Virus record (IMG/VR): IMGVR_UViG_3300032047_000003
Coordinates: 1 to 64,000 of that record
Origin: a virus
Reading direction: 5' to 3' (one strand)
DNA length: 64,000 bases
The notes beneath the pieces were generated by a model that searched no databases, had not been told where the DNA came from, and saw only the letters and a list, made by a program, of their open reading frames with translations. Shown here piece after piece: positions 2,447 through 61,900 of the stretch. Each line of letters opens with the position of its first letter. The stretch's first letter is position 1. The position numbers and the translations under genes are program-made.

Positions 2447-3490
2447 ATGGCAATTAAAAAAGTAACTGGAATACCAGAAATAGATGGAATAATTAGCGCT
2501 AGTGCTAAAAAATTTGGAAAAGAATTAGTAAGCATGGGGCCTAAAAAATCACTTTCAGAAGTAAAAGTAATTTCAACCGGTTCCATCTTCTTAGATTGCG
2601 TTTTAGGTTCTGGAGGTTTTCCAGACAACAGAATAATTGAAATCTTTGGACCTCCAAGCGCTGGTAAAACTAGCATCGCTTTACAATTCATGTCAAGATA
2701 CGTAAAAGAAAGAGGGTACGAAAAACCTCCAGTCTTCATCGATCTAGAAAGAACAACAAGCCTTCAATTGGTAGAATCAATGGGAATCGACCCTAACAAA
2801 GTTATTTTCTGTTATCCCGATACCGCTGAAGAAGCATTGGAACTTGCTAAAGATTTAGGAAATACTACTAAAGTTGGCTTTGTAGTATTCGACAGTATTG
2901 ATGCTGCTCAAGCTGAAGCAGACGTTAAACGCGACATGTCTTCTAAAGGAGTAGGTGAACTTGCAAGGCTTCTTTCAAAATCTATGCGAACCTTATCTAA
3001 AGTTGGAGACAACAATGATGTCTGTTTTATTTTTATAAATCAAATCAGAATGAAAATTGGAGTAATGTATGGCAACCCAGAAACTACAAGCGGTGGGAAC
3101 GCTTTGCCCTTTTACTCATCTCTAAGATTGAGAGTAAGCTCTAAGCCTTCTAAAACTCAACCTGGCGCTTTAGATATGAAAATCAAAGTTGTTAAAAACA
3201 AACTTGCTCCAGGCCAAAATGCAACGGCTGAATTTGAATTTGTTTGTGCAAAAGGAATTGAGCCCTACAACGACTTAGTAAGTTATGCTAAAAACCTCGG
3301 CATCTTTAGATTTGCCGGCAGCGCAGTAAAGTTGAAACTTCCAGAACAAGAAGAATACACTATGTGCACCGGAGGCTCAGCAGGATGCATTGGATATCTT
3401 CAAGAAAATCCAGAAATGGAAAATAAAATTAGGAACACCTGTTATCAAATTTCCGGAATAAATCCCCCAGAACAAGAAACACAACAATAA
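2447..3490 (+). CDS. recA: RecA-family recombinase
   Basis: ATP-dependent strand-exchange protein for homologous recombination and probably recombination-dependent replication. It is 347 residues, close to bacterial RecA. Walker A is GPPSAGKTS near residue 68, Walker B-like is [10 protein letters not shown] near residue 145, and loop L2 with the RecA signature is [18 protein letters not shown] near residue 213. An N-terminal alpha/beta segment precedes the core. It is closer to RecA than to T4 UvsX in the L2 and ISTGS motifs. The start has AAGGA about 8 nt upstream. It is followed 8 nt later by the first dnaE fragment, so the two are probably co-transcribed. Confidence 0.93.
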
Positions 3491-3498
3491 GGAAAACA

Positions 3499-4812
3499 AT
3501 GGAAAAAAACGATTTTGTTCATATGCACATGCATACTGAATACTCGCTGCTTGATGGTATTAATCAAGTAGCGAGGTTGCCTCACCATATCGCATCTATG
3601 GGTCAAAAAGCAGTAGCTATTACAGACCATGGGAATGTATCCGGCAGCTACAAGTTCTACAAAGAATGCAAAAGAGCTGGCGTAAAACCCATAATCGGAA
3701 TGGAAGCGTACTATACTGTAGAAGACAGAGCAACTAGAGAAAAAGATGATCTTGGAAACTCTTACTACCATTTAGTCTTGCTTGCAATGAATAATACCGG
3801 TTTGAAAAACTTATACAAACTATCGACGTTTGCATATACTGAAGGAATGTATAGAAAGCCAAGGATAGACGATGCTTTAATTGGAGAATATTCAGAAGGA
3901 ATAATTGCTACTACAGCTTGCCTAGGAAGCAGAATAAGTCAATTGATATTAACAGATAAAATCAAAGAAGCAGAATATGTATTAGATCATCATAGAAATC
4001 TTTTTGACAAAAGGCTTTTGATAGAACTGCAGCTCCACAAAGATCCAGAACAAATTAAAGTAAACAAAGCCCTTCTTGAGTTAGCTGACAAAAAAAACAT
4101 AGAGGTAATTTTAACAAACGATTGCCACTACACGAATGAACATGACAAAATGTTTCATGAAATCGCTCTTTGCATGCAAACTAAAACAACGCTATCCAAC
4201 GAAAAACGATTTACTTTTGGCGACATAGACGTTCACGTTGCCAATCATAACTGGATGGCTGCTAAAGCCGCATGCATGGGAATACCTTATAGAGCTTTAT
4301 CAAATACAGTTGAGTTGGCAAAACTTATCGACAGCAACTCTTATTTTGAAGATAGAAAAAACAGGTATCCTAAATACAAAAATTTCCAATATGCAAAAAA
4401 TAGCTGGGACGAACTTGAGCACATGTGCAAGCGAAAACTTTACAATATGTTTGGAGAAATGCCTCCAGCTGTGTATAGAGAAAGAATTGACTATGAGCTG
4501 TCCATTATAAAGAAAATGGGATTTAGCGACTATATGTTAATCGTCCAAGAGTTCATTGATGGAGCAAGAAGTCTAAACATACCAGTTGGCCCTGGAAGGG
4601 GTTCTGCTGCAGGCAGTCTTGTTTCCTACGCTCTAGGAATAACTAAAGTCGATCCAATAAAATATGGTCTTTTATTTGAAAGATTCCTAAATTACGGAAG
4701 GGGTTCAACTCCAATAATTTTTACAGAACAACAAAAAGCCTACATTAAAGAATCTAGCAATCACACTCACTGCACACACAAACATAAGTGTTCGTGCCCC
4801 GGAGACCACTAA
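3499..4812 (+). CDS. dnaE: DNA polymerase III alpha, fragment 1: PHP domain and first half of palm
   Basis: N-terminal third of a C-family replicative polymerase. Residues 1-270 are the PHP domain. All nine usual metal ligands seem present (H10, H12, D19, H44, E69, H91, C141, D208, H210), so it may be a working proofreading exonuclease; I see no separate DnaQ. Residues 364-382 are the palm motif [19 protein letters not shown], and [13 protein letters not shown] (392-405) leads towards the catalytic loop. At that point homology stops. A tail of about 32 residues follows, ending in a Cys/His-rich stretch ([16 protein letters not shown]). The catalytic aspartates PDIDIDF lie in the next fragment (from 5371). 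The gene ends in a 4-nt tail-to-tail overlap with an antisense gene. No intein motif is visible at its end. Confidence 0.93.
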
Positions 4813-5309
4813 GCAATAAACATGCAACTTATCTTATTAGTGCCACCACTATGAGTAATTTCCAAACTTGTAATTGGCAAATCTCCATAAGAATCATAGC
4901 TATTCCAAGTAGTTCCGGCAGGTTGACTTCCGTCTGCAACTGAAATAGTCAAAGACCCCGGCTTACCACCCCAAACATTTGTGTGTCGGTCTGTTACATT
5001 GTCTGCACCTAAAACAGGTATAGTCAAGCCAGTAGTAGAATCAACTTCTCCGTAACCAAACTCTGGAAGAACGCTAACGTTCCCGTCAATGTCAACTATT
5101 CCAGCTTTAAAAGAAACACTTCTTCTTAAAGCTGAATTCAATACGATGCTTACAGTTTGACTTGCTTCTACTTCAATAATTATTTTAGAAGCGGACTCTC
5201 CTAATAAGCGCAATACGTCAATTTGCGATCCATTTTCAATATCTGTTAACTGAGCAGATAAACCAGCACCTTTAATGCTTGGAACCAATGTGGGACTATA
5301 AGTTGTCAT
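4809..5309 (-). CDS. Virion-like beta-rich protein inside the first dnaE break
   Basis: The 166-residue product is rich in Ser, Thr, Gly, Ile and Val with alternating patterns ([40 protein letters not shown]). It looks like a small beta-sandwich decoration or fibre protein, although I recognise no family. It has a strong AAGGAG 8-10 nt before its ATG, like the virion and small basic genes elsewhere. It lies antisense to the interrupted dnaE locus, converging with fragment 1 and diverging from fragment 2. Placement and strand suggest it arrived as an insertion. The virion role is an inference from composition. Confidence 0.7.
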
Positions 5310-5370
5310 TTAATAAACTCCTTTTTCTTTTATAAAGAAAAATTAATAATTTTTATATAAGGTATTTAAT
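5310..5370. promoter_or_regulatory. Divergent intergenic region between virion-like gene and dnaE fragment 2
   Basis: These 61 bp separate two divergent starts, so they are the only room for a dedicated dnaE fragment 2 promoter and for the antisense gene's promoter. They contain a perfect 9-bp inverted repeat (TTTTTCTTT at 5322-5330, AAAGAAAAA at 5334-5342) and a palindromic TTATATAA (5353-5360) that could act as a -10-like box in either direction. Everything here is A+T only, so promoter calls are tentative. Confidence 0.35.
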
Positions 5371-6987
5371 ATGTTAAACAAAATCAAAAGCTTTTACATA
5401 AGCGAAAGAATAAATAAGGTTGATAAAGATTTTCTTTCATATGAAGAAGACTTTATGACAGAAGACGATGCTTCTATAATAGTATCATTATTAAAGCTCA
5501 ATAGTAAAGCAAAACTTAAAAATACACACAATAGTATTGTTCTTTACTGCACTGGCTTGACAGATGAATTTAATTTTGAAAAAGCAAGATCAAATACAAT
5601 TGATGGCAGTCCTCCAGATATTGATATTGACTTTGATGCACTAAACAGACAGAAAGCTATAGATTGGGTTGTCGAAAAATGGGGTAGAGATAACGTTGCA
5701 AATATTATTACGCACGGAACATTTAAACCTAAAAGCCTAGCAAGAGGTTATTATCGAGTTACTGAAAAAAACTCTCAGCACTTAAATGAAATTCTTCGAG
5801 AAATACCTCAAGCTAAGTTTGGTAAAGAAGCCACTATGGAAGAAATACTTAAAGCTGCCCCTAAACTCAAAACAGAAGAAAAATATTCTGATTTTTTAGA
5901 GTTTTCAGATAGATTAGAAAGCATGGTCTCTACTTTCGGAATTCACGCAGCAGGCGTAGTAATCAGTGATTTCCCTATTCACGATGTAGTTCCCATGTGG
6001 AAAAATTCAAAATCAGAAAGAATTACTCAATTTGATAAAGACGAAACAGAAGAATTGGGTTTGATTAAATTCGACTTTCTTGGCATTGACACCCTTTCAA
6101 TAATTCAAGAATCTATAAACTTGATTAAACAAACAACTGGAGAAGAAATTGACCCCTTTAGTATCTCAGATTACGACAATAAAACATATACTCTTATGCA
6201 ATCTGGACTACTTACTGGTGTTTTCCAAATGGAAACATCTGGAAAAGCCAAGCAACTTATACAAGAAATACATCCTGAAAGCATTTCAGAATTAAGCGAC
6301 ATATCAGCTTTAAATAGACCTGGCCCTATGCAAGCTGGCCTTGATAAAAATTATATCTTAACAAAAAAACAAGGATTCACCTCTCTTGATATGCCAGAGT
6401 CAGTAAAAGAAATCTTAAAAGATACGCAGTACACACTGATTTACCAAGAACAAATTATGGCTCTTTTAAATAAAATGGCCGGATTCTCCCTTAAAGAAGC
6501 CGATGATGCCAGACGTGCAATGGGTAAAAAAAAGAAAGAAGTTTTAGAAAATTACAAAGAAAAATTTATATCCGGATCCCTTAAAAACGGAATTGATGCT
6601 TTTTACTCCAAGTCCCTCTGGGAAGACATTATGGGGTTTGCAGATTATTGCTTGCACGGAGATACAAAAGTTTGGACTCGAGAATTTGGTTACATAAAGA
6701 TAAAAAACATAGTTGACGAAAAGCTAGCTTGTACGGTTGCAAGTTTTAATGGCGAAAATATTATAGAACAAAAAGTGATCCAATACTGGAATAAAGGGAG
6801 CAAAATATGTCACTCTTATGTTATAGAAAATAATAATAATATAAAATGTACTCCAGATCACAAATTCTTAAGAAACACCGGAGAATTGGAAGAGATAGGT
6901 AGAATTTTAACTAAAAATCAACACTTGAAGGAATGCTTTAAAGATGAGTATAATAAATATAGACTTAACGAAAAAATCAATCGGTAA
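5371..6987 (+). CDS. dnaE: DNA polymerase III alpha, fragment 2 (catalytic palm and fingers) fused to N-intein
   Basis: Middle part of the replicase plus half of an intein. Residues 1-79 are an extension that I cannot align to DnaE. From residue 80, SPPDIDIDF carries the two palm aspartates (D83, D85), and KFDFLG gives the third (D235). IHAAGVVIS, TGVFQMETSG, ALNRPGPM and IYQEQIMALL mark the palm and fingers. The extein ends at GFADY (Y426). C427 opens a 112-residue N-intein with block A CLHGDTKVW and block B IKCTPDHKF (T494, H497). The gene alone cannot make a full polymerase: it needs fragment 1 for the PHP domain and trans-splicing to fragment 3 for the rest. An AAGG lies about 10 nt before ATG. 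Confidence 0.93.
   Translation: MLNKIKSFYISERINKVDKDFLSYEEDFMTEDDASIIVSLLKLNSKAKLKNTHNSIVLYCTGLTDEFNFEKARSNTIDGSPPDIDIDFDALNRQKAIDWVVEKWGRDNVANIITHGTFKPKSLARGYYRVTEKNSQHLNEILREIPQAKFGKEATMEEILKAAPKLKTEEKYSDFLEFSDRLESMVSTFGIHAAGVVISDFPIHDVVPMWKNSKSERITQFDKDETEELGLIKFDFLGIDTLSIIQESINLIKQTTGEEIDPFSISDYDNKTYTLMQSGLLTGVFQMETSGKAKQLIQEIHPESISELSDISALNRPGPMQAGLDKNYILTKKQGFTSLDMPESVKEILKDTQYTLIYQEQIMALLNKMAGFSLKEADDARRAMGKKKKEVLENYKEKFISGSLKNGIDAFYSKSLWEDIMGFADYCLHGDTKVWTREFGYIKIKNIVDEKLACTVASFNGENIIEQKVIQYWNKGSKICHSYVIENNNNIKCTPDHKFLRNTGELEEIGRILTKNQHLKECFKDEYNKYRLNEKINR
6649..6984 (+). other. Split intein, N-terminal half (IntN)
   Basis: Codons 427-538 of dnaE fragment 2. Cys1 follows DnaE residues GFADY, the exact insertion site of the cyanobacterial DnaE split intein. 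Block A (CLHGDTKVW) and block B (TPDH) are intact, and length and layout match the roughly 100-residue Npu/Ssp DnaE IntN. It acts in trans with the IntC at 9104. Confidence 0.93.
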
Positions 6988-7237
6988 TCAAAGCGCTATT
7001 TTTTTCAAAAAAGAGGAATTTATTTTAAATCAAAATAATCAAAATCCATTTGTTTTATCAAATAACGCAAAACAAGACTCAGAAACAGTTCATCTGAACG
7101 GACTGTTGTTAAAAGCCAAAAATCCTAATTCCGATTATAGTCTTTCTAATAAAACTTTAAACTTAAATATTGAAACAAATATAGGCGATTTACTTACAAT
7201 CGCTTATGCAACTGCCGACACTAACGGCAGTGAGTAA
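6944..7237 (+). CDS. Small virion-like protein, related to the C-terminus of the next fibre
   Basis: The 97-residue protein overlaps the IntN coding end by 44 nt, with GAAGGA about 11 nt before its ATG. Its C-terminal part has the order VHLNGLLL, then DYSLSN, then GDLLTIAYA. The same order (VTLNGLQL, EEYGVILN, GSDVICIMI) closes the 474-residue fibre encoded next. This NGLxL...DYxL...GDxLxIxY layout is common at the ends of phage fibre and whisker proteins. A fibre cap or accessory role is inferred. The out-of-frame overlap means it was placed right against the intein half. Confidence 0.6.
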   Translation: MSIINIDLTKKSIGNQSAIFFKKEEFILNQNNQNPFVLSNNAKQDSETVHLNGLLLKAKNPNSDYSLSNKTLNLNIETNIGDLLTIAYATADTNGSE

Positions 7238-7269
7238 ATAACAACATAAAATCCTAGGAGGGGTTATAA

Positions 7270-8694
7270 ATGAAAAGAAAATTACAACTTAAGCAAATTG
7301 ACATTACCATTGACAATGGTACTCATATTTCAATTGGCGAAACTGACTTAAAAGACAATTCAAACAATATCATTGGTAGAAAACTTGCAATTGACGACAG
7401 TAGCCTAGTTAGTCAATTAAGTACTTTGCAAAGCAATATCAATGCTGTACAAAGTGATGTCGATGGCAATGAAGCAGATGCTGATAATGCGATTGCAGCA
7501 GTCCAAGCTGACGTTGATCAAAATGAAGCTGATGCTGATACTGCAATTGCTGCAGTACAATCCGATGTTGATGCTAATGAAATAGCTGCCAACAACGCGA
7601 TTGCAGCAGTGCAAGCTGACGTTGACCAAAACGAACTTGATTCTGATGCTGCTGACACTGCTTTAAGCAATCGCCTTACCGTACTTGAAGCTGATCCGAC
7701 TACAAAAACTTATGTAGACGGCCAGATCTCAACAACTCTTGCTTCTGAAATGTCTTACAGAGGCGGAATTGATGCTAGTGCTGCAAATCCTCTTCAGGGC
7801 CTTACTGTAGGTAAAGGTGACATGTGGACTGTAACTACTGCTGGTAGTTCATTTGGAGATGCTCTAGCTGTAGGCGACATGGTTATTGCAGAAGTTGCTA
7901 ACGCTTCTATGAGTGGGCTTTCAGATTTTACTTTAGTTCAAAAGAACTTTGACCTAAGCGCTTATTCTACAACTGTTCAAATGAGTGCAGCAATTGCCGT
8001 TGTCCAATCCGATGTTGATCAAAATGAAGCTGACGCTGACGCAGCAATCGCTGCGCTTCAAGCAGATGTAGATCAAAACGAAGTCGATTCTGATGCTGTG
8101 GACACTGCTATTATAGGCGGTGCAGGGCTTGATGCTAATGGTGGCTATAGCGCTCCAGGTAACCAAGCGGCAAATCCATTTCTTCACAATGCTAGCACTC
8201 TTAAAGATGCTGATACTAAGCTCGAAACTGCAGTAGTAGCCAATGAAACCGAAATCCAAAACCTTGCTCAATCTTTAAGCACGGCATCTGGTTTCGATTA
8301 CTGCGCTTACTACACAATGAATGAAACCGATCTAAATGGTCTTGGCTCTACTCAAAATCCTGAGATTAGATTTCAAAATGCTCCTCTTGCAAATTCCCTT
8401 AAAGGTACTCATACTATCGAGTATGATGATGTTGCTGGAATCCAGCGCGACCAAAGTGGAAATATCGTTAGCCAGCATTCTCAAGAAGTACTATTAGGTA
8501 AAATACTAGTTACTTTGAACGGATTGCAATTGAGAGGTAAAACTGGAAACGTTTTTAATGCAGATCCTGAAGAATACGGTGTCATACTTAACAATAACGC
8601 TACTTCTGGTAAAGATGAGCTTGCCATTGAATTTGCAGAAGGACTACTTGACGGAAGTGACGTAATTTGCATCATGATCTCAAGAGGCATATAA
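7270..8694 (+). CDS. Coiled-coil tail-fibre or whisker-like protein in the intein gap
   Basis: The 474-residue protein has a strong GGAGGGG ribosome site. Residues 56-127 are four 18-residue repeats of the type AIAAVQADVDQNEADADT, and residues 241-276 are two more, consistent with a trimeric coiled-coil shaft. Between them is a fibre module with TYVDGQI, SYRGGIDAS and GKGDMWTVTTAG...VGDMVIAEV, typical of phage fibres. The C-terminal 80 residues form a beta-rich NGLQL/DVICIM cap. It is probably a virion appendage. It is the only clearly late-type gene in the + strand replication block and ends 38 nt before a strong terminator, so it looks like a self-contained cassette. Confidence 0.75.
   Translation: MKRKLQLKQIDITIDNGTHISIGETDLKDNSNNIIGRKLAIDDSSLVSQLSTLQSNINAVQSDVDGNEADADNAIAAVQADVDQNEADADTAIAAVQSDVDANEIAANNAIAAVQADVDQNELDSDAADTALSNRLTVLEADPTTKTYVDGQISTTLASEMSYRGGIDASAANPLQGLTVGKGDMWTVTTAGSSFGDALAVGDMVIAEVANASMSGLSDFTLVQKNFDLSAYSTTVQMSAAIAVVQSDVDQNEADADAAIAALQADVDQNEVDSDAVDTAIIGGAGLDANGGYSAPGNQAANPFLHNASTLKDADTKLETAVVANETEIQNLAQSLSTASGFDYCAYYTMNETDLNGLGSTQNPEIRFQNAPLANSLKGTHTIEYDDVAGIQRDQSGNIVSQHSQEVLLGKILVTLNGLQLRGKTGNVFNADPEEYGVILNNNATSGKDELAIEFAEGLLDGSDVICIMISRGI
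7435..7650 (+). repeat. Four in-frame 54-bp repeats in fibre gene
   Basis: Tandem 54-nt units encoding 18 residues with core AVQxDVDxNExxA. The protein copies are better conserved than the DNA, so they are under coding selection and not simple satellite DNA. Confidence 0.85.
7990..8097 (+). repeat. Two further copies of the 54-bp fibre repeat
   Basis: A second block of the same 18-residue unit (residues 241-276), 340 bp after the first block. The two blocks flank the globular YVDGQI/GDMWTV module, suggesting that the module was inserted into one shaft or that the shaft was duplicated. Confidence 0.85.
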
Positions 8695-8732
8695 TATAAC
8701 ATAATATAATAACGTAAAAACTATTGCGTTAG

Positions 8733-8763
8733 CCCCTCGTTGAAAAGCGAGGGGTTTTTTTTT
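8733..8763 (+). terminator. Strong intrinsic terminator after the fibre gene
   Basis: CCCCTCG pairs with CGAGGGG and extends through T-A and T-G pairs to a GAAA tetraloop, followed by nine T residues. It is the best terminator in the window. It separates dnaE fragments 1-2 and the fibre from dnaE fragment 3 and all downstream replication genes. Confidence 0.93.
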
Positions 8764-8778
8764 ACTTAAGGAGTAAAT

Positions 8779-9120
8779 ATGACATTCTTACAAAAAATAA
8801 ACTTGTACTACATACTGTTTTCTACCTGGCTGAAATTTTTCTTTTTATTAATAAGAAGTGATAAGAAATTTCTATTCCTACCAGAAGGCGGAACCAAAAA
8901 AATAAAGCTAATGGCAAGACCTTACATGTTGGAAGAAAAGAAAGAACGCAAAGGTCTCAAAGATAAAACAAAAACAGTCACGTACATAAACGCACTAAGT
9001 AAAACTTTAACAAGAGATGAAAATCAAAAAGAAAATTTTAAAAAATTATTAGAATATACTTTTTTATGGTATTGTTTTGAGCAACACATGGAGTTCCAAA
9101 AAGATGAAGATCAAAGCTAG
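8779..9120 (+). CDS. 113-residue basic hypothetical protein upstream of IntC
   Basis: Unknown. It has a strong AAGGAG 6 nt before ATG and starts only 16 nt after the terminator. A hydrophobic N-terminal segment (residues 8-27, with several Phe and Leu) could be a membrane anchor or signal-like helix. It is followed by a Lys/Glu-rich helical region and a short aromatic stretch (YTFLWYCFEQH). I see no HNH, GIY-YIG or LAGLIDADG motif, so it is not a recognisable homing endonuclease. Its last 17 nt overlap the IntC start. Confidence 0.6.
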   Translation: MTFLQKINLYYILFSTWLKFFFLLIRSDKKFLFLPEGGTKKIKLMARPYMLEEKKERKGLKDKTKTVTYINALSKTLTRDENQKENFKKLLEYTFLWYCFEQHMEFQKDEDQS

Positions 9121-9208
9121 CGAAAACATTGGTTATCATGATGTTTTCGATATTGGCCTTGCTGGCCCACACAACTTTCTCATAGAAGGTGGAATTTTTG
9201 CTTCTAAC
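9104..9208 (+). other. Split intein, C-terminal half (IntC)
   Basis: Codons 1-35 of dnaE fragment 3. Block F is DVFDIGLAGPHNF, block G ends in Ser-Asn, and the +1 residue is Cys, the standard class 1 splice junction. Length (35) and sequence match the cyanobacterial DnaE IntC, which is normally about 36 residues. Confidence 0.94.
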
Positions 9209-10330
9209 TGTTTCAATAAGTCCCACTCTATAGCATACTCCTACTTGACTTATATAACTGCTTACTTAAAAGCAAACTACCCTTGTCAATTCTTTTGCGC
9301 TTTAATGACAACTAGATCTAAATCTTTACAACCTAAAGATTGGGCTCAAAAAGCACCTCAATATGTCAATGAAGCAAGACAGCTAGGAGTAGAAATAAAT
9401 GCACCTAGCGTTAACGCTTCAAATTTAGAATTTACAATATCTCAAAATGAGATATATTTTGGATTAAACGCAATACGAGATGTAGGTAAAACAGCAGCTA
9501 AAAGTATAATGGCGGCAAGGGGAAATACTCCATTTAAAGACGTTTTCGATTTTGTTTCTAGAGTTAATACTCAAAAAGTAAATATAAAAACATTTGTTTC
9601 CCTTGTTAAAGCTGGCGCTTTTGATAAAATGGGCTATTGCAGAATAGAACTTTTAGAAATTTCACAACAGATATACGACTATTACAAAGATATTCAAGAA
9701 TACGCTCAAAGGATTCTTGATATCCAAGAAAGAAACGATTATAACAATATAGTAATTCCCAAAATAGAACGCAGAAATGAACTGCGAAAAATCTACAAAT
9801 CTGAAACCAATAGAAGACTTAAGGAAAAGCAAAAGCTTTCTGAAGCAGACTACACTAAAGTGCAAGTGGAACTAGAAGAGCTTGAAGCGTTAAACCTTAA
9901 AAAGAAAGTTTCGTTAAAAGAGAAAAACGAACCCGTAAAACCAAATGTAACAAAATATCAAAAAATAAAAATAACTCTTGCTCAAATCATTGAACAAGCT
10001 AACTACATAGGTTGTTATTTACAGACTCATCCTGCACAATTTATACAAACTAAAAATAAAATTCAAAACATGAATATAAATCAATATGGTAAAATAGCTG
10101 CAGTAGTTACATCTTTAAAAGAAATAACTACAAAAAAGAATCAAAAAATGGCTTTTTTAGAATTAGATGACTCTCAAACTATATGCGAAGCAGTTATATT
10201 TCCAAGAAGCTATCAAAAAATAATGAATCTAGATCTTAAACAAGGTGAACTTATCATGGCAGAAGTAAAAGTCCAATCTACCGATCCCTATAAGCTCATT
10301 GTCAATAAGATCAATATATATCAAGGATAA
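9104..10330 (+). CDS. dnaE: C-intein fused to DNA polymerase III alpha, fragment 3
   Basis: The 408-residue product begins with a 35-residue IntC (MKIKASENIGYHDVFDIG, then HNFLIEGGIFASN) and continues at C36 with CFNKSHSIAYSYLTYITAYL, the conserved start of the DnaE C-extein. Next come a helix-hairpin-helix region (FGLNAIRDVGKTAAKSI), a long charged coiled coil (about residues 170-260) and an OB fold (GKIAAVVTSLKEITT...KMAFLELDD, near residue 330). The protein stops after the OB fold, so the tau-binding tail of bacterial DnaE is missing. ATG at 9104 is chosen because GGAG lies 10 nt upstream and it matches the usual IntC start. Trans-splicing with IntN should join Y426 of fragment 2 to C36. 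Confidence 0.94.
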   Translation: MKIKASENIGYHDVFDIGLAGPHNFLIEGGIFASNCFNKSHSIAYSYLTYITAYLKANYPCQFFCALMTTRSKSLQPKDWAQKAPQYVNEARQLGVEINAPSVNASNLEFTISQNEIYFGLNAIRDVGKTAAKSIMAARGNTPFKDVFDFVSRVNTQKVNIKTFVSLVKAGAFDKMGYCRIELLEISQQIYDYYKDIQEYAQRILDIQERNDYNNIVIPKIERRNELRKIYKSETNRRLKEKQKLSEADYTKVQVELEELEALNLKKKVSLKEKNEPVKPNVTKYQKIKITLAQIIEQANYIGCYLQTHPAQFIQTKNKIQNMNINQYGKIAAVVTSLKEITTKKNQKMAFLELDDSQTICEAVIFPRSYQKIMNLDLKQGELIMAEVKVQSTDPYKLIVNKINIYQG

Positions 10331-10336
10331 AAAACA

Positions 10337-11416
10337 ATGTCTAAATGGAACGAAGAAGAAGAGCACTTGCTTAAGACCTTAATAAGTACCAAATCCTATG
10401 AAGAAATTTTTTATGCATTTAAAGAAAGACACTCTAAGTGTTTGCCTGGGTTTAAAAAATTTAGATCTTTAAGAGCTATAACTAAAAAATGCGAAAAACA
10501 ATCTATTACACCTCAAAAATATAAAAAATACGAAGACCCTTACAAAAAGCGTTGGGAGAGAATAAAAGATATAACAAAAGAATATAAAGAAAAATCTGAA
10601 AGTTATTCCGTTGGAGTAAATGTAGATGTTTCTAGAAAAATACTTTGCTTATCAGATATACACTTCCCTTTTTCCTTAGAAGATGAATTAAAAAAAGCAT
10701 TAGAAGAGCATGCAGATTCCGATATTGTTGTTTTGAATGGAGACATTCTTGATGGATATATATACTCTACTTTTGCTAAAGCTAAAAGGATTGCTGCTTT
10801 AAAAGAGTATATGGCTGCTTTCGAACTAGTAGAATATTGTTCTCTTAATTTCCCTAAAGTTGTAATAGTAGCTGGAAATCACGACATAAGACCAGCAAGA
10901 GCATTGGCTTCTGCTGGCTTTGAAAAAGAAGAATCTCAAGTTTTAAGACCAGATCTTTTAGCAAGAATTGCTAATGGAGAAAAATTAAACGAAGAAGGAG
11001 ATTTAATAAAAAAACTTGATTTTTCAAATGTTTTCTATGAAAAATATGACGCTTGGTATGTCAGGATAGGTAAAACAATATTTGCTCATCCCTCTGGTTA
11101 CAGAGGTGGCCCTGGTGGAACCGCTCAAAAGCTTTATGAATATTTTATAAAAAGAATGGGAAGTGATGACTTCGACAGTATAGTCGTAGGCCATACTCAT
11201 AAAATTTACAAAGGTGTTTTTTGTAACAAGCTTTTAATAGAACAGGGCGCCATGTGCGACAGACAGCCTTATCAACATAAACCTAATTTAAGATTCCTTC
11301 ATGCTATGAATGGATATTGCATCGTGTATCAAGACAAAGACGGAAATACAGACTTTAATAAAACAACTCCAATATACTTAGGCAGTATGCTGCCTCCAAA
11401 AAAAGGAATACTATGA
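10337..11416 (+). CDS. Calcineurin-like metallophosphoesterase
   Basis: The 359-residue protein has the full metallophosphoesterase motif set: SDIHF (DxH), NGDILDG (GDxxD), AGNHD (GNHD), an AHPSG histidine and VGHTH near the C-terminus, which together bind two metal ions. Residues 1-90 are a basic extension starting KWNEEEEHLLKTL and resembling a Myb/SANT-type helical DNA-binding unit. Substrate is unknown: phage relatives may act on nucleic acid ends or on nucleotides. It lies directly after dnaE fragment 3 with AAGGA before ATG, so a role in DNA processing is plausible. Confidence 0.85.
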   Translation: MSKWNEEEEHLLKTLISTKSYEEIFYAFKERHSKCLPGFKKFRSLRAITKKCEKQSITPQKYKKYEDPYKKRWERIKDITKEYKEKSESYSVGVNVDVSRKILCLSDIHFPFSLEDELKKALEEHADSDIVVLNGDILDGYIYSTFAKAKRIAALKEYMAAFELVEYCSLNFPKVVIVAGNHDIRPARALASAGFEKEESQVLRPDLLARIANGEKLNEEGDLIKKLDFSNVFYEKYDAWYVRIGKTIFAHPSGYRGGPGGTAQKLYEYFIKRMGSDDFDSIVVGHTHKIYKGVFCNKLLIEQGAMCDRQPYQHKPNLRFLHAMNGYCIVYQDKDGNTDFNKTTPIYLGSMLPPKKGIL

Positions 11417-55915: not shown

Positions 55916-58900
55916 TTAATTACCTTTTATATATTGCAACAACTGTCCCGAATCTTTTAGATATTTCAATCCAGGATCGTTTGCTCTTTCTGGGTTTCTG
56001 GAAACTATATGTTTATAAAACTCAGTACCCATTGCTTCGTTTTCGTCAATCGTATCAAAAACGCCTCTAAATGCATCATCTATTCCTGACACAATATCTC
56101 CTAAAATATTTTGCCATACTGAAGTTGGAGACCTAGTACTTACCCCCGCAAATAAAGGCTTCCCTTCTTTTACAATGGGAACAATAGTAACTGCTTCACT
56201 TTCCAACAATTTAGAAAAAATTATTGGAGCTGCAATAAGGTAACTGGAGCTAAACCTATCTAAAACTTGACTCGAGTTGTAATAATACTGATTGTCAACA
56301 CCTGCCATATACACTCCTCCTGAACCCCCAACCCCAGCTGCTTTTAAAAGCCCACCCGCATTAAGTTTCCACTTCCCCAGAAGCAGCAAAGATAAACCCG
56401 CACCTGTAAGGCCTATAGCCTTAGTCGCGAATTGACCAGCTGTACCTGTCGTAGGATTCAATGCATCGGCTGCAAAAAAAGCAGAAACTCCAAGGTCAAA
56501 TAAACTTTCAACTGTAGAAACAGCTTGATCTTGAAAATCGCTAAAATCTGAATTCAAAGAAGGGTTCTGGTTTCCTAAATCCTTAAAAAGCTTTTCGAGA
56601 TTAACAGTTGCTTTAACATTATTTTCCGTATTAGTTGTCTCTCCAAAAATATTTTTATCTATATCGACAACTTCTTTATACTCAATAATTCCATTTCGCA
56701 CTAAATCGCTATAGCGTTCTATCATCGAACTAGAAGCTTCATAAGACAAATTAAAACCATCTATATTCAAAGATACGTCTGGTGATTCTGGAATTATTCC
56801 TAATCTTTGCCCAAGAGTACCATACCCTATCTCTCCCAATTCTCGCGAAGTACTTTCATTCATTCTTTTTATTGCAGTGTCTAACTCTTCTTTATCCTTA
56901 CTGGTTGTAAGAATTGCTGGCAGGTTTTTATCTCCACCATATTGCTCATTTACTGAGCTCGCATCTGAACTAGAGCCTCTGTCTATAACACTTCTTTCCC
57001 TTGCTATGGCTCCTCCTACATATACTTTTAAAGCTTCTAGTACTGGCCAACTTGAAGATTCATTTCCAACAACAATCGCGTTCGGAACTATTTCCGTTAT
57101 ATATCCTGTTTCAAAAGAAAATATATGGGTTACTGATTTTACTTCAACTGGCCCGGACATTTTACTTTGATCGTCAAATAAAAAACAAACATCCCATGGT
57201 TTTACAGAAGGGTCTCCTAATATGGATATCTCTCCAGAATACATTTCTTTAACTCCATATATTAAACTTCCAATACCGTATCTTGTAGCCATGGCTCTAT
57301 CTCTTATATCGTATTTGTCTACGTTTTGACTAATTAAATTGCTGTCAGGTATATTGGAACTTGCTTTCATAAAGACACTTTTTTTATTGTTCGCATCATG
57401 CATATCTTTGTAATATACGTTCACGGAATTAACTGCATTCCTTTGAGAAACTGTGAAGTTGTTTCTAATCAAATTTTCCCTAGATCTAATTAGGTGATAA
57501 TTTCTAAACGGAACAAAACGATTTTCTAACCCTGTTAAATACTCTTTTAAAAGTCTTCCTCTTAGTTCAATTGTATTTCTGTTTAATTCTAGATCGTCCT
57601 TACTAATCGTCTGACCCTCAACATACCTTTCATCGACATTATTTTCGTCAGCAAGAAAATTTTCGATTTTAGAACCAAAAGTAGAAAACCTGTGATCCGC
57701 TCTATTATTTATAAACTCAATTAGTTTTTTTCTATCATTAATGTCAGAAAACGTTTCGTCTGCACGAATATCCGTTTCTATCGATCTTGCTTTATCTTTA
57801 AGCTTCAGGCGAGCTTCCCCTTTAGCAGCCATTCGCTCAAACTTTCTTTTTAGCTCTCTTTGACTCATCCCAGAATAACGTTTTGGTTTCTTCAACATCT
57901 CCTCCATCAAAAATAGTAAATTACTTCCGGTCTCATCCCAGGAATTGGTTTCATAATAATTCTGTCTATCCTTAAGGTCTGCTTCAGTCACTATTGCGTC
58001 TGGATTGTAAACTCCAATTGCTATATTCCAAGTATCTGTAAATTTCCTTTTTGACATAGCGGCATGATACTCGGCTCTGTTGTACGTAGTTTTTACTTGA
58101 TTTGCAACAGCAAGTAAATTTCTTGCTTTTCCCTTGAATTTAGACATAAGATTTTTTCGAGCTTTTTTCTTAAATTCCTCGTATTCTGCATCAGATATCT
58201 TTTTGGTTTTGTAATCTTCGTTGTACCCTTGCTTGAAAAATCGTTTCAAATCATCTTCATCATCAACATTTGCTGTTAGCAGCTCTCTTACTGAATTCAT
58301 TCTTTGAATAAAACCAGGAGTGGCCGGCTTGCTCCAGTATCTTTGAGATGGGATTCCAAAAAACATAGTATACCTAAACTCCTTTCCATAAGGAACTGCG
58401 CTGTAAATCCAACCAGGATGCCTTAGCGTCATTTCGTGAAAAACATCCCATATAGTGCTATTCTGAAGTTTATACCTACAAGCGTCAGGATGAACTCTTT
58501 TTAAATACAAAAGTGGGTTTACGTTTTGCCAGTCCTTTAAAAACTCCATTGCGCTTTTACCTTCAGCTCCAGAAAAATCCGAAAAAGCCATTTGGAACAA
58601 CATTCCTACTTTTTCGCTAACAGTCTTTTCTATATGCGTAAGATTGTGCATGTAGTAAATTGGACTAGGAGGATACAAGTTGTCATCTGAAGGATTTAAT
58701 TTAAAATAAACCAGTTCTTTGGTAAACCAATTTTGATAAAGCCTTCGATATTCTTTATGAGTATCTGTAAAACTCTTTCCAAAAATACCCCCTCCAATAT
58801 AATCTACTGCAAAAAAGAAAAGAGAAGTTTTAAAAAATATTGCCGTAGAGTTAAAAGTTGCACTTAGAGCAGTTGTTCCTAAAAATAACGGCGTACTTCC

Positions 58901-61900
58901 CCCGGCTCCTCTGAAGCCTTGCAAATAAACACTTCTTGCAAATGAAGGTTGAGAAACAGCAGCTATCATAAACCTTTCACTCGCTTTAAAAAGGTCAAAA
59001 ACTCTTTTAGTCAATTGGGGATTAGCAAGAACATCATCTGCACCTGAGACTGCGGTTCTTCCTATAATGGCAAAAATTTCATCTATTTCTTTCGTAAGCG
59101 TTTTAAACACAGCATAGCTGCTTCCTCTCGGCACAGCCTTTAAAGCAGTCTCTACACTTAGTAAAGATTTTCTCAGTGCTGTTTGCGTTAAAGATGTCGT
59201 CGCTGCTGAAAGTACCTTTACTTCAGCTGCCACTGTCTTTACAACGCTACTAGCCGCTCTCACCAAATCGTCTCCTATCCCAATAAAAAGATGCTTAAAA
59301 GCTCCTAAAGCAGCATCTCCACCTTGCGCAAGCCCTCTGCGCAGAGCAGTATATCCGCTAACAGTGCTGAAACCTCCTCTCATCAATGAACCAACCCTGT
59401 TAAGCCCCACTCTAGAAGCTAATCTTCCTAAGCTTCCTGACACGAAAGGAAAGAATCTGGGATTCATTAAACTCGCAACTGCTGTCCTTATATAACTAAA
59501 TGGAAGTCTCCATGCGGTTCTTGGCGCTAACTTAGACCCTCCTTCCACTGCTTTTACCGTAAACCCTCTTAAGCCAAATCCCGGAAGACCTACTTTTCCC
59601 AAACCAAGTCTTTTTGTAAAAAGAAAACTGATTCCAATACCCACTGAAGCAATAGCGGTTTCAAGCCCCCAATCAGACAAAAATCCTGCCCACTGTTTAT
59701 AGCCTTGAAGAGCAGACGGATCGCTATTGTCCTTATACCTAAAGAAATCCAATCTAGCATCTTGAGCTTCGCCGTATTGAAAAATCCTACCAGTCTCCCA
59801 TCTTCCAAAATGTTTTAATTCTGGAGAAAGCATTAAGCTGCCTAAAACTTGATGAGTAGCAAAATACTCTTTATTTTTTGAGTCTTCTTCGATACCTTTT
59901 AAGTGTTGAACTAGTTCAGTCCCAAAACTTTGAACAACTATTTCGCAAGTATCTCCTGCTCCGCCCCAACTAATATCTGTCACTCTCCCTGAAATTAAAA
60001 CCTCTAAGTTATCTGGATTGTTAGAATATCCAGCTCTAAGCTGGATATTCATTCCAGGCCTTAAAACAACTGCACTGAAAGGTTGGTCTGTATCTGACTC
60101 TAAATTAGAGTTATCAGCAGAATAAGAAACCAAAGTATTCCTGTCTTTTTTTTCAGAAGACTTATTCTCTCTTTTTATTCTTTCTACTCTTTTTTTCGAA
60201 AAATAATCAACATCAATCGTAGCTCCTTTTCTTGTTCCATCTAAAGTGCCTGCAATATTTTGCAATGAAATGATTGCTGAGTCTGCAGCATTCTCCCTGG
60301 ATCTTGAAACTGAAAAAGATCTAACCCCGTTAAAAGAATAAAAGTCATCCATGTTTATAAATCTACTTTCAAATTCGTCCTCTTCTATAAAGAATAATTT
60401 AAAAGTAGGATAAGCTCGAGAAAGTTTTTTCTTTTCCGTAAAAAGCCTCGCAGAGGAAGCCTTAGCTAAACTATTTAAACCTTCAAGTGAAAAAGTTTGA
60501 TTATAATTTGTTTGAGCCCCAAGGCCTCTCAGCTTAACGTCATTGAGTAAGGTTTCTACAGCCTTGCTGTTTTCGCTTTTTTCTTCGATCAAATCGCCTA
60601 CATATCCCGCTCCATTTCCAAACATATTCTCTATTTGCATTACTTCGTCTGATAGCATCGCTACAGAATTGACTTCTTCAAGCAAGTTTCCATTTTCATG
60701 AACATACAAAGCACTTGAATCATAACTGTTGTTTTTCACAATTGCCTTTAGGGGCTCGACTCCTGTGATTTCATGAACACGGTTGAAACCACTAATTGCA
60801 TCTGAAGGGCTTTGAACCCCTTGCTGCCCGTCCATTATATAGGAAGTGTCTATTCCTACTGCCCACCCTCCTACAGTAGCTGCACTGTCATAAAGCATCC
60901 CACCGAAACCAGAAGCTCCATCAGTTATTTTTGCTGACCACGGCTTAGTTATGGAACGGTTGCCATCAGCATCTATGAATCTTAAATACCTGTAGAGGGA
61001 AGTTCTCTGAGCAACTACTTGCTCTCTTGTCTCGGCTACATAGCTATTATCGTAACTAGAGCCATCTCCATTTTGGTCAAATTTAAAAACAAAGCTATCT
61101 TTTCCTTCTGATTCTTGAATCAAAGTAACGATTTCTTTTTTCAACGAATCGGTCAAATCATTTCTTTTTGCCTGCCCTGTAAAAAACGGACTGTTCGCTT
61201 CTCCCAAGTTTTTATACAAAACGTAATGCCCGTTACTATCGTAATAAGTATCGTAAGGGTAAAGAACGTTGTCGGTACCTTCATTGTTAGTGCTAAGACC
61301 TGAAGTGTTGTCGTTTGTAACATCTGTCGCATCTGAATCCGCAACCCTAATAGCAGTAATACTTTTGGACTCCATCTTTTTTAAATGTTTGTATGCTCCC
61401 TCTAAATAAACCTTTGAATTCCTTTCGATTTCATCTAGAAACTCTTTAGTTATTTTTGCTCCTCCATCATTATAAATATCCCACATGTAAAAAGCGGCTC
61501 CAGTCTCAAAATTACTTTGAGTGTAAAAAGGATGATTGGGCAAACCTAAATCAGGATAACACTCTATGCCGCTATATCTTTCAGAAGGAGGCACATAGTT
61601 ATAAGACTCATTTAAAAAGTCGATTCCCAACGCATAACAAACTTCTCTGTTTTTTTTCACTTCTTCTACAAAGCTTTTCAATTCATTTCTAAAAGCTTCA
61701 AGTTTTTTTAGTTCGTCGTCAGCATTTATATAGTTTGACAAATTGATTTCTTTTAAAACCTCAAGATCTGTTCTAATATCTCTAAATCGAAAGTTATTTG
61801 AAAGAGCAGCGCCTTTAGCATAACGACTCTCGTTTGCTGTTTCGCTAAGATATTTTACATCAGTTCCCAACATGCTTTCAATTTTAAGGTTACCCTTATC

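What the first reader, a model, noticed from the sequence alone, without database searches (positions are those of the whole stretch)
6649..9208. Phage split intein at the cyanobacterial DnaE site, with virion genes in the gap
IntN (112 aa) and IntC (35 aa) match Npu/Ssp DnaE inteins in layout, block motifs and insertion site (GFADY/CFNKSHS). Fractured phage genes with split inteins usually have a homing endonuclease between the halves; here the gap holds a fibre gene, a small cap-like gene and a 113-aa gene. Phages may have moved or donated this intein.
Basis: partly seen in the sequence, partly recalled or inferred. Interest (0 to 1): 0.88.

Follow-up and report, generated by a model that had tools for sequence, protein, structure and literature searches.

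The report
Phage polymerase gene fractured around fibre genes
In a family of uncultured phages the gene for the DNA-copying enzyme is broken into three pieces with virion and host-recognition genes in the breaks, and a split intein, the same type that cyanobacteria use, is predicted to weld two of the pieces back together at the protein level.

Summary
The window encodes a DnaE-type split intein: IntN 6649-6984 (112 aa) and IntC 9104-9208 (35 aa), at the cyanobacterial site GFADY|CFNKSHS. The closest solved relatives are Npu/Ssp DnaE inteins. The 2.1-kb gap holds a fibre-like gene and two small genes, and no homing endonuclease.

The polymerase gene is in three pieces: a second, intein-less break (4812/5371), beside the catalytic Asp motif, holds an antisense gene. 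About 20 IMG/VR phages share this locus. Break 1 is in every member that shows both sides; most members carry the split intein. Gap 2 (2.1-9.4 kb) carries tail-fibre, lectin-like and, in one subgroup, lysis genes. None of 70 gap ORFs matches a homing endonuclease family. Gap genes turn over faster than flanking dnaE. One 4.2-kb fibre block is 90% identical between phages whose dnaE is 70-79% identical, so the gap behaves as an exchangeable cassette. Two larger phages carry inteins closer to the cyanobacterial ones; one has a LAGLIDADG endonuclease fused to IntN.

Splicing and polymerase reassembly are inferred. Phage donation to cyanobacteria is compatible with the tree but not shown. I rate it a new variant of the fractured-gene arrangement.

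The parts
3499..4812 (+). dnaE piece 1 (437 aa): PHP domain and start of the palm, ending ...[16 protein letters not shown] plus a ~30-aa Cys/His-rich tail
   Evidence: PHP E 2.5e-46, DNA_pol3_alpha to profile position 104; TIGR00594 1-401; 65% identical to L002 piece 1
4809..5309 (-). antisense ORF in gap 1 (166 aa), probable virion protein
   Evidence: no significant profile hit; homologous to the antisense gap-1 ORF of L036 (E 6e-4), which links to those of L069, L083, L010, L002 and L006
5371..6648 (+). dnaE piece 2 extein (426 aa): novel ~80-aa N-terminus, catalytic DIDIDF motif, palm and fingers
   Evidence: DNA_pol3_alpha 99-260 and finger domain E 2.6e-45; 59-64% identical in five relatives; dN/dS about 0.1 where measurable
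6649..6984 (+). IntN (112 aa), Cys1, block B CTPDHKF
   Evidence: TIGR01445 E 1e-12; Npu DnaE 2KEQ E 7.7e-17 as IntN+IntC
6944..7237 (+). 97-aa ORF overlapping the end of IntN; small fibre-cap-like protein by position and length
   Evidence: same position as small first gap ORFs of L002, L010, L024, L072 and others; no significant profile hit
7270..8694 (+). 474-aa fibre-like protein with NEADADxAIAAVQADVD repeats
   Evidence: phrog_30158 E 9.5e-18, function unknown; position equals confirmed tail fibres of L077 and L079
8731..8756 (+). intrinsic terminator that ends the fibre transcript before the IntC unit
   Evidence: 11-pair stem then T8; z -5.8; similar hairpins at the same place in L002, L010, L069
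8779..9120 (+). 113-aa ORF, hydrophobic N-terminus, overlaps the start of IntC by 17 bases
   Evidence: small ORF before IntC also in L002, L010, L072, L077, L075
9104..9208 (+). IntC (35 aa), ATG with GGAG about 10 bases upstream, ends ...FASN
   Evidence: TIGR01443 17.6 bits; PRK07373 from its position 3; 60% identical to L002 IntC; dN/dS 0.03-0.05 in relatives
9209..10330 (+). dnaE piece 3 extein (373 aa): CFNKSHS... to HHH and OB fold
   Evidence: HHH_6 E 3.8e-27, OB fold; phrog_405 786-1071

Best explanation
The phage replicative polymerase (Pol III alpha, DnaE) is made from three separately translated pieces. Pieces 2 and 3 are joined by protein trans-splicing: IntN (end of piece 2) pairs with IntC (start of piece 3), Cys1 and Cys+1 carry out the acyl transfers, Asn35 cyclises, and GFADY is ligated to CFNKSHS. 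Piece 1 (PHP and start of the palm) has no intein and probably binds non-covalently. The DNA between IntN and IntC is no longer a homing-endonuclease niche. It is an insertion and exchange site for host-recognition genes, tolerated because the intein removes the cost of interrupting dnaE. The conserved dnaE exons on both sides provide homology for swapping the cassette between co-infecting phages. Shown by sequence: layout, conservation across the family, purifying selection on both intein halves, absence of recognisable endonucleases, cassette mosaicism, a terminator before the IntC unit. Inferred: splicing, polymerase reassembly, the homology-arm role, and that both breaks began as homing-element insertions.
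For: Profiles and PDB match; same three-piece layout in L002 and others. Empty-site siblings L005 and L006 read through GFADYCFNKAHS as one ORF. IntC dN/dS 0.03-0.05, IntN 0.29-0.45. Gaps 2.1-9.4 kb, mostly 86-98% coding, gap-2 ORFs all on the dnaE strand. Tail fibre E 4.7e-131 and collagen E 1.7e-81 (L079), head decoration E 3.9e-25 and M15 peptidase (L009), LamG (L036). No endonuclease family among 70 gap ORFs. Mosaic: L072/L079 gap block 90% over 4.2 kb against 70% and 79% in the flanking dnaE; L077/L079 gap 16% aligned against 100% of the exons. L002 gap-2 gene is homologous to an L006 gap-1 gene, E 4.6e-9. Terminators. Endonucleases at or next to both sites in relatives: L054, L061, L085, Bacillus phage G gp330.
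Against: No splicing or polymerase assay. The window's own gap genes lack informative profile hits, so their virion role is by analogy. Host unknown. Break 1 splits the enzyme beside the catalytic aspartates without an intein, so a non-functional or alternative product cannot be excluded from sequence, although conservation argues against decay. The endonuclease-origin step rests on relatives, not on remnants in the window.
Confidence: 0.78

Rival explanations
1. Plain fractured gene that lost its endonuclease: the gap genes are neutral passengers and the fibre location is accidental.
For: Fractured genes with an endonuclease in the gap are known (e.g. MIJ3 PolB); L054 still has a LAGLIDADG endonuclease in the gap.
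Against: Gap-2 content is adhesin or virion-like in several sublineages and also in L061, which branches outside the L003 outgroup; the fibre block is exchanged faster than the flanks.
Confidence: 0.15
2. Regulatory design: the split delays or doses active polymerase by putting the IntC half in a separate transcription unit after the fibre terminator.
For: Strong terminator-like hairpin before the IntC unit in four phages.
Against: Intein-less siblings L005, L006 and L071 manage without it; gap size and content vary widely; no expression data.
Confidence: 0.1
3. The inteins are dead relics and the polymerase works as three non-covalent subunits.
For: Break 1 has no intein at all, so non-covalent assembly must be tolerated there; split polymerase and RNR are functional in T4-like phages (PMC2988022).
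Against: All catalytic intein positions are kept; IntC dN/dS 0.03-0.05; exact extein junctions CFNKSHS and CFNKAHS kept.
Confidence: 0.07

Closest known systems
Cyanobacterial split DnaE inteins (Ssp, Npu)
   Same: Host protein, insertion point Y|CFN, split point, sizes (~100+35 aa), Ser before the terminal Asn instead of His; Npu 2KEQ is the best PDB hit
   Different: Phage gene; halves 2.1-9.4 kb apart in one locus rather than in distant places; family lies outside the cyanobacterial clade in the intein tree; cargo in the gap
Fractured genes with split inteins (Dassa et al. 2009, known here only as cited) and MIJ3 PolB (PMC6892783)
   Same: Gene broken inside an intein, halves adjacent, phage or phage-like
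   Different: Those have a homing endonuclease in the gap (MIJ3: HNH orf154); here host-recognition genes and no endonuclease match
Genes-in-pieces of T4-like phages: Aeh1 nrdA/mobE, T4 topoisomerase gene 60/mobA, gene 43 of phages 25 and 44RR (PMC2988022)
   Same: Break 1: essential enzyme encoded in two pieces without intein or recognisable intron
   Different: Gap 1 holds virion-type or metabolic genes, not an endonuclease, except in L061 (LAGLIDADG)
Bacillus phage G dnaE (gp329, gp330)
   Same: gp329 stops at FERFLNPTRGKLP, the same place as break 1, with a homing endonuclease gene next
   Different: The gap contains an annotated homing endonuclease; a separate contiguous intein sits at GPGRG

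Membership tests
DnaE-site split intein (cyanobacterial type) | Inserted in DnaE before CFNK(S/A)HS | tested here: met
   GFADY|CFNKSHS
DnaE-site split intein (cyanobacterial type) | Splicing blocks: Cys1, block B TxxH, block F HNF, terminal Asn, Cys+1 | tested here: met
   CLHGDT, CTPDH, PHNF, ASN|C
DnaE-site split intein (cyanobacterial type) | Ser/Ala instead of His before the terminal Asn (PMC5874633) | tested here: met
   ASN in the window, AAN in L069, VSN in L009
DnaE-site split intein (cyanobacterial type) | Halves on separate polypeptides, split near residue 100 | tested here: met
   112 and 35 aa
DnaE-site split intein (cyanobacterial type) | Falls in one clade with cyanobacterial DnaE inteins | tested here: inconclusive
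   Sister side: family versus L054, L061 and cyanobacteria 97/92; root unknown
DnaE-site split intein (cyanobacterial type) | Splices in trans | not testable with these tools
   needs an assay
Fractured genes (Dassa-type) | Gene broken within a split intein, halves adjacent | tested here: met
Fractured genes (Dassa-type) | Homing endonuclease gene between the halves | tested here: not met
   no endonuclease family at E<=0.01 in 70 gap ORFs; present only in the related L054
Genes-in-pieces (Aeh1 nrdA type), break 1 | Coding region broken without intein or intron, both pieces translated and conserved | tested here: met
   No Rfam intron match; pieces conserved with low dN/dS; translation itself not shown
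Genes-in-pieces (Aeh1 nrdA type), break 1 | Homing endonuclease in the gap | tested here: not met
   Antisense 166-aa ORF without significant profile hit; LAGLIDADG only in L061
Genes-in-pieces (Aeh1 nrdA type), break 1 | Pieces assemble into an active enzyme | not testable with these tools
   needs an assay

The most novel reading that the evidence does not exclude
The cyanobacterial DnaE split inteins, standard laboratory tools, descend from a phage homing element at this site. The L054 phage keeps a form close to the ancestral one (IntN fused to a LAGLIDADG endonuclease, IntC restarted in another frame). In the phage line the endonuclease was replaced by a swappable host-recognition cassette inside the replicative polymerase gene, so that conserved dnaE halves act as homology arms for exchanging host range.
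Probability: 0.3. Interest if true: 0.92.

Novelty: new variant of a known kind. Interest (0 to 1): 0.82.

Why it matters
Natural split inteins are usually described with an endonuclease between the halves or with the halves far apart. Here the split appears to have been put to use: an essential polymerase gene is a landing site for genes that decide which host is infected. It also supplies about a dozen new, divergent DnaE-type split inteins, and two phage relatives close to Npu/Ssp, one still carrying an endonuclease. This makes the origin of the cyanobacterial split intein directly testable.

Tried and rejected
Group I/II intron in the dnaE region: no Rfam match above gathering in window 3400-10600 and none in six related loci. 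Split intein at break 1: no splicing motifs in the piece 1 tail or piece 2 head. Duplication at break 1: piece 2 SIVLYCTGLTD resembles palm SLVAYALGITN, but hhalign gives P 0.0012, probability 19%, and for most members some shuffles score as well; suggestive only. AlphaFold2 of piece 2: mean pLDDT 55 with six sequences, not used. Intein at this site in Streptomyces phage Daubenski: none, an extein-only match; Weasels2 has a contiguous intein a few residues downstream, a different site. Cyanobacterial host: no psbA-type gene in 19 phage records; host stays unknown. Omnitrophota L205: LAGLIDADG intein at the downstream site, not this one. Nucleotide search of phage records found no relative. Sigma-70 promoter scan at background.

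Full report
OBSERVATION. The window is bases 1-64,000 of a 111,567-base virus record. At 6649 the dnaE reading frame passes from ...GFADY into CLHGDT..., and runs 112 codons to a stop. At 9104 an ATG with GGAG about 10 bases upstream opens a 35-residue IntC ending ...FASN, followed by CFNKSHS and the rest of DnaE. NCBIfam recognises both halves, and the cyanobacterial DnaE-N and DnaE-C models run through them. The joined halves match Npu DnaE 2KEQ with E 7.7e-17.

THREE PIECES, NOT TWO. Piece 1 (3499-4812) ends after ...[18 protein letters not shown] with a short Cys/His-rich tail. Piece 2 (5371) starts with about 80 residues not seen in ordinary DnaE, then the catalytic GSPPDIDIDF. The TIGR00594 profile is used almost without loss across the break (1-401, then 396-747). 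There is no intein and no Rfam intron here. The gap holds an antisense 166-aa ORF. Piece 1, piece 2 and piece 3 are 65%, 58% and 53% identical to those of phage L002, and the new N-terminus of piece 2 is conserved as protein.

A FAMILY. Scans of IMG/VR found about 20 distinct contigs with this locus, several represented more than once. Mapping the pieces shows break 1 in every member of the family whose record covers both sides. At site 2 there are three states: split intein with a gap of 2.1 kb (window), 2.8 (L036), 3.4 (L069), 3.9 (L002), 5.1 (L010), 7.7-8.4 (L077, L079, L072, L075), 9.1 (L011) and 9.3-9.4 kb (L009); nothing, with one ORF through GFADYCFNKAHS (L005, L006; L071 by mapping); and, in the sister pair L083/L085, no split intein, with L085 interrupted there by a LAGLIDADG ORF. 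The extein tree (quick method, SH-aLRT only) separates phage DnaE from cyanobacterial DnaE (98), groups 19 family rows (100), and nests the three intein-less phages inside the intein-bearing ones (91 and 96), which suggests precise loss. Several long branches in that tree are flagged by the program.

WHAT IS IN THE GAPS. Gaps are mostly 86-99% coding. Of 70 gap ORFs scanned, none matches LAGLIDADG, HNH, GIY-YIG or another endonuclease family in Pfam at E 0.01. Hits include collagen, laminin-G lectin, peptidase M15, cement protein and AdoMet decarboxylase. PHROGs give tail fibre (E 4.7e-131, L079) and head decoration (E 3.9e-25, L009). In L009 and L011 the gap also contains an M15-peptidase-type ORF and a holin-like ORF next to many small virion-type ORFs (the holin label is mine). 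The window's own 474-aa ORF matches only an uncharacterised PHROG, so its fibre role is by repeat pattern and position. The antisense gap-1 ORF is a family shared by several members, and one L002 gap-2 gene is homologous to an L006 gap-1 gene (E 4.6e-9), so both gaps draw on one pool.

CASSETTE EXCHANGE. L077 and L079 align over all of exon 2, IntN, IntC and exon 3 at 70-75% but over only 16% of gap 2. L072 and L079 have exons at 70% and 79%, yet a 4,242-base block covering fibre sequence in gap 2 is 90% identical. Cargo more alike than its frame, next to cargo with no similarity, is the signature of recombination of the fibre module. That the dnaE exons serve as homology arms is my inference.

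EXPRESSION. In the window, L002, L010 and L069 a strong hairpin lies between a fibre-type gene and the small ORF (or ORFs) that precede IntC. In the window, L010 and L002 it is followed by a U-rich tract, as in an intrinsic terminator. The IntC half is therefore probably transcribed separately, and the pieces must meet as proteins.

FUNCTION OF THE INTEIN. Catalytic residues are kept in all members examined. Between related pairs IntC has dN/dS 0.03-0.05 and IntN 0.29-0.45; distant pairs are saturated and uninformative. Both halves are under purifying selection, which is hard to explain unless splicing occurs.

ORIGIN. Two large phages outside the family hold DnaE inteins at the same site that are 59% (L054) and 63% (L061) identical to cyanobacterial ones. 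L061 has two ORFs in its gap, one of 915 aa with a carbohydrate-binding domain (E 1.4e-6), a second HNH intein four residues downstream, and a LAGLIDADG ORF in its own break 1. L054 has IntN fused to a LAGLIDADG endonuclease (E 8.4e-8), and IntC opens in another frame overlapping its end, with a GGAG before the ATG. L054 and L055 are identical over 20 kb, so they are one virus; a frameshift polymorphism cannot be excluded. The intein tree joins L054, L061 and cyanobacteria (97/92), L061 and cyanobacteria (95/87), and leaves the window's family on the other side. Break 1 coincides with the end of gp329 in Bacillus phage G, which is followed by a homing endonuclease gene, and in L085 a LAGLIDADG ORF interrupts GSPPD|IDIDF. 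Both breaks thus sit at or next to sites that attract homing elements. I infer that endonuclease-bearing elements made the breaks and that virion genes later replaced the endonucleases. Direction of transfer between phages and cyanobacteria is undecided.

COMPARISON. By anatomy this works like a fractured gene with a split intein, but the defining endonuclease in the gap was tested and not found, so it is a variant rather than a plain member. The intein itself meets all sequence criteria of the DnaE-site split intein except proven activity and clade membership. Literature: passages of MIJ3 PolB (PMC6892783), genes-in-pieces (PMC2988022) and homing genes at exchange boundaries (PMC10448857) were read. 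Dassa 2009 and Caspi 2003 were not available, so statements on them rest on citations and my own knowledge. My paper searches found no description of virion genes inside a DnaE split intein, but only open-licence papers could be searched.

LIMITS. All members are metagenomic or unassigned contigs; the host is unknown and no psbA-like gene was found. No assay was possible. The intein tree rests on 136 columns.

Noticed in passing
L054:8389-11239: Cyanobacterial-like DnaE IntN fused to a LAGLIDADG endonuclease, IntC restarted in another frame with its own ribosome-binding site; a candidate ancestral form of the DnaE split intein.
   Followed up: partly
L061:5428-11317: Npu-like split intein with two virion-type ORFs in the gap, then a four-residue extein (CFNK) and a second, contiguous HNH intein before SHS.
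   Followed up: partly
L024:61-1984: RecA in two ORFs broken near ...GVMYGN / ...PETTSGGN with a 205-aa ORF matching a restriction-endonuclease-like family (MTES_1575, E 2e-4, below cut-off) between them; no Rfam intron at gathering.
   Followed up: no
L085:8630-13313: dnaE interrupted at GSPPD|IDIDF and after GFANY by two LAGLIDADG ORFs, in addition to break 1 with antisense virion-type ORFs.
   Followed up: partly
L024:3626-3988: S-adenosylmethionine decarboxylase-like gene in gap 1, an auxiliary metabolic gene inside the polymerase gene.
   Followed up: no
L032:3303-7056 (Rhodococcus phage Weasels2): dnaE in two ORFs at the PHP/palm border, and a contiguous intein a few residues downstream of the cyanobacterial site.
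   Followed up: partly
L034:9246-20009 (Bacillus phage G): gp329 has a contiguous intein at GPGRG and stops at the break 1 site before homing endonuclease gp330; polymerase sequence resumes in gp339.
   Followed up: partly
L083:11176-11570 and L086:10942-12196: Further insertions within the fingers part of dnaE in two relatives, not identified.
   Followed up: no
window 55916-63892: 2658-aa ORF on the minus strand with an endolysin PHROG match (E 1e-39) in its C-terminal part, next to baseplate genes.
   Followed up: no
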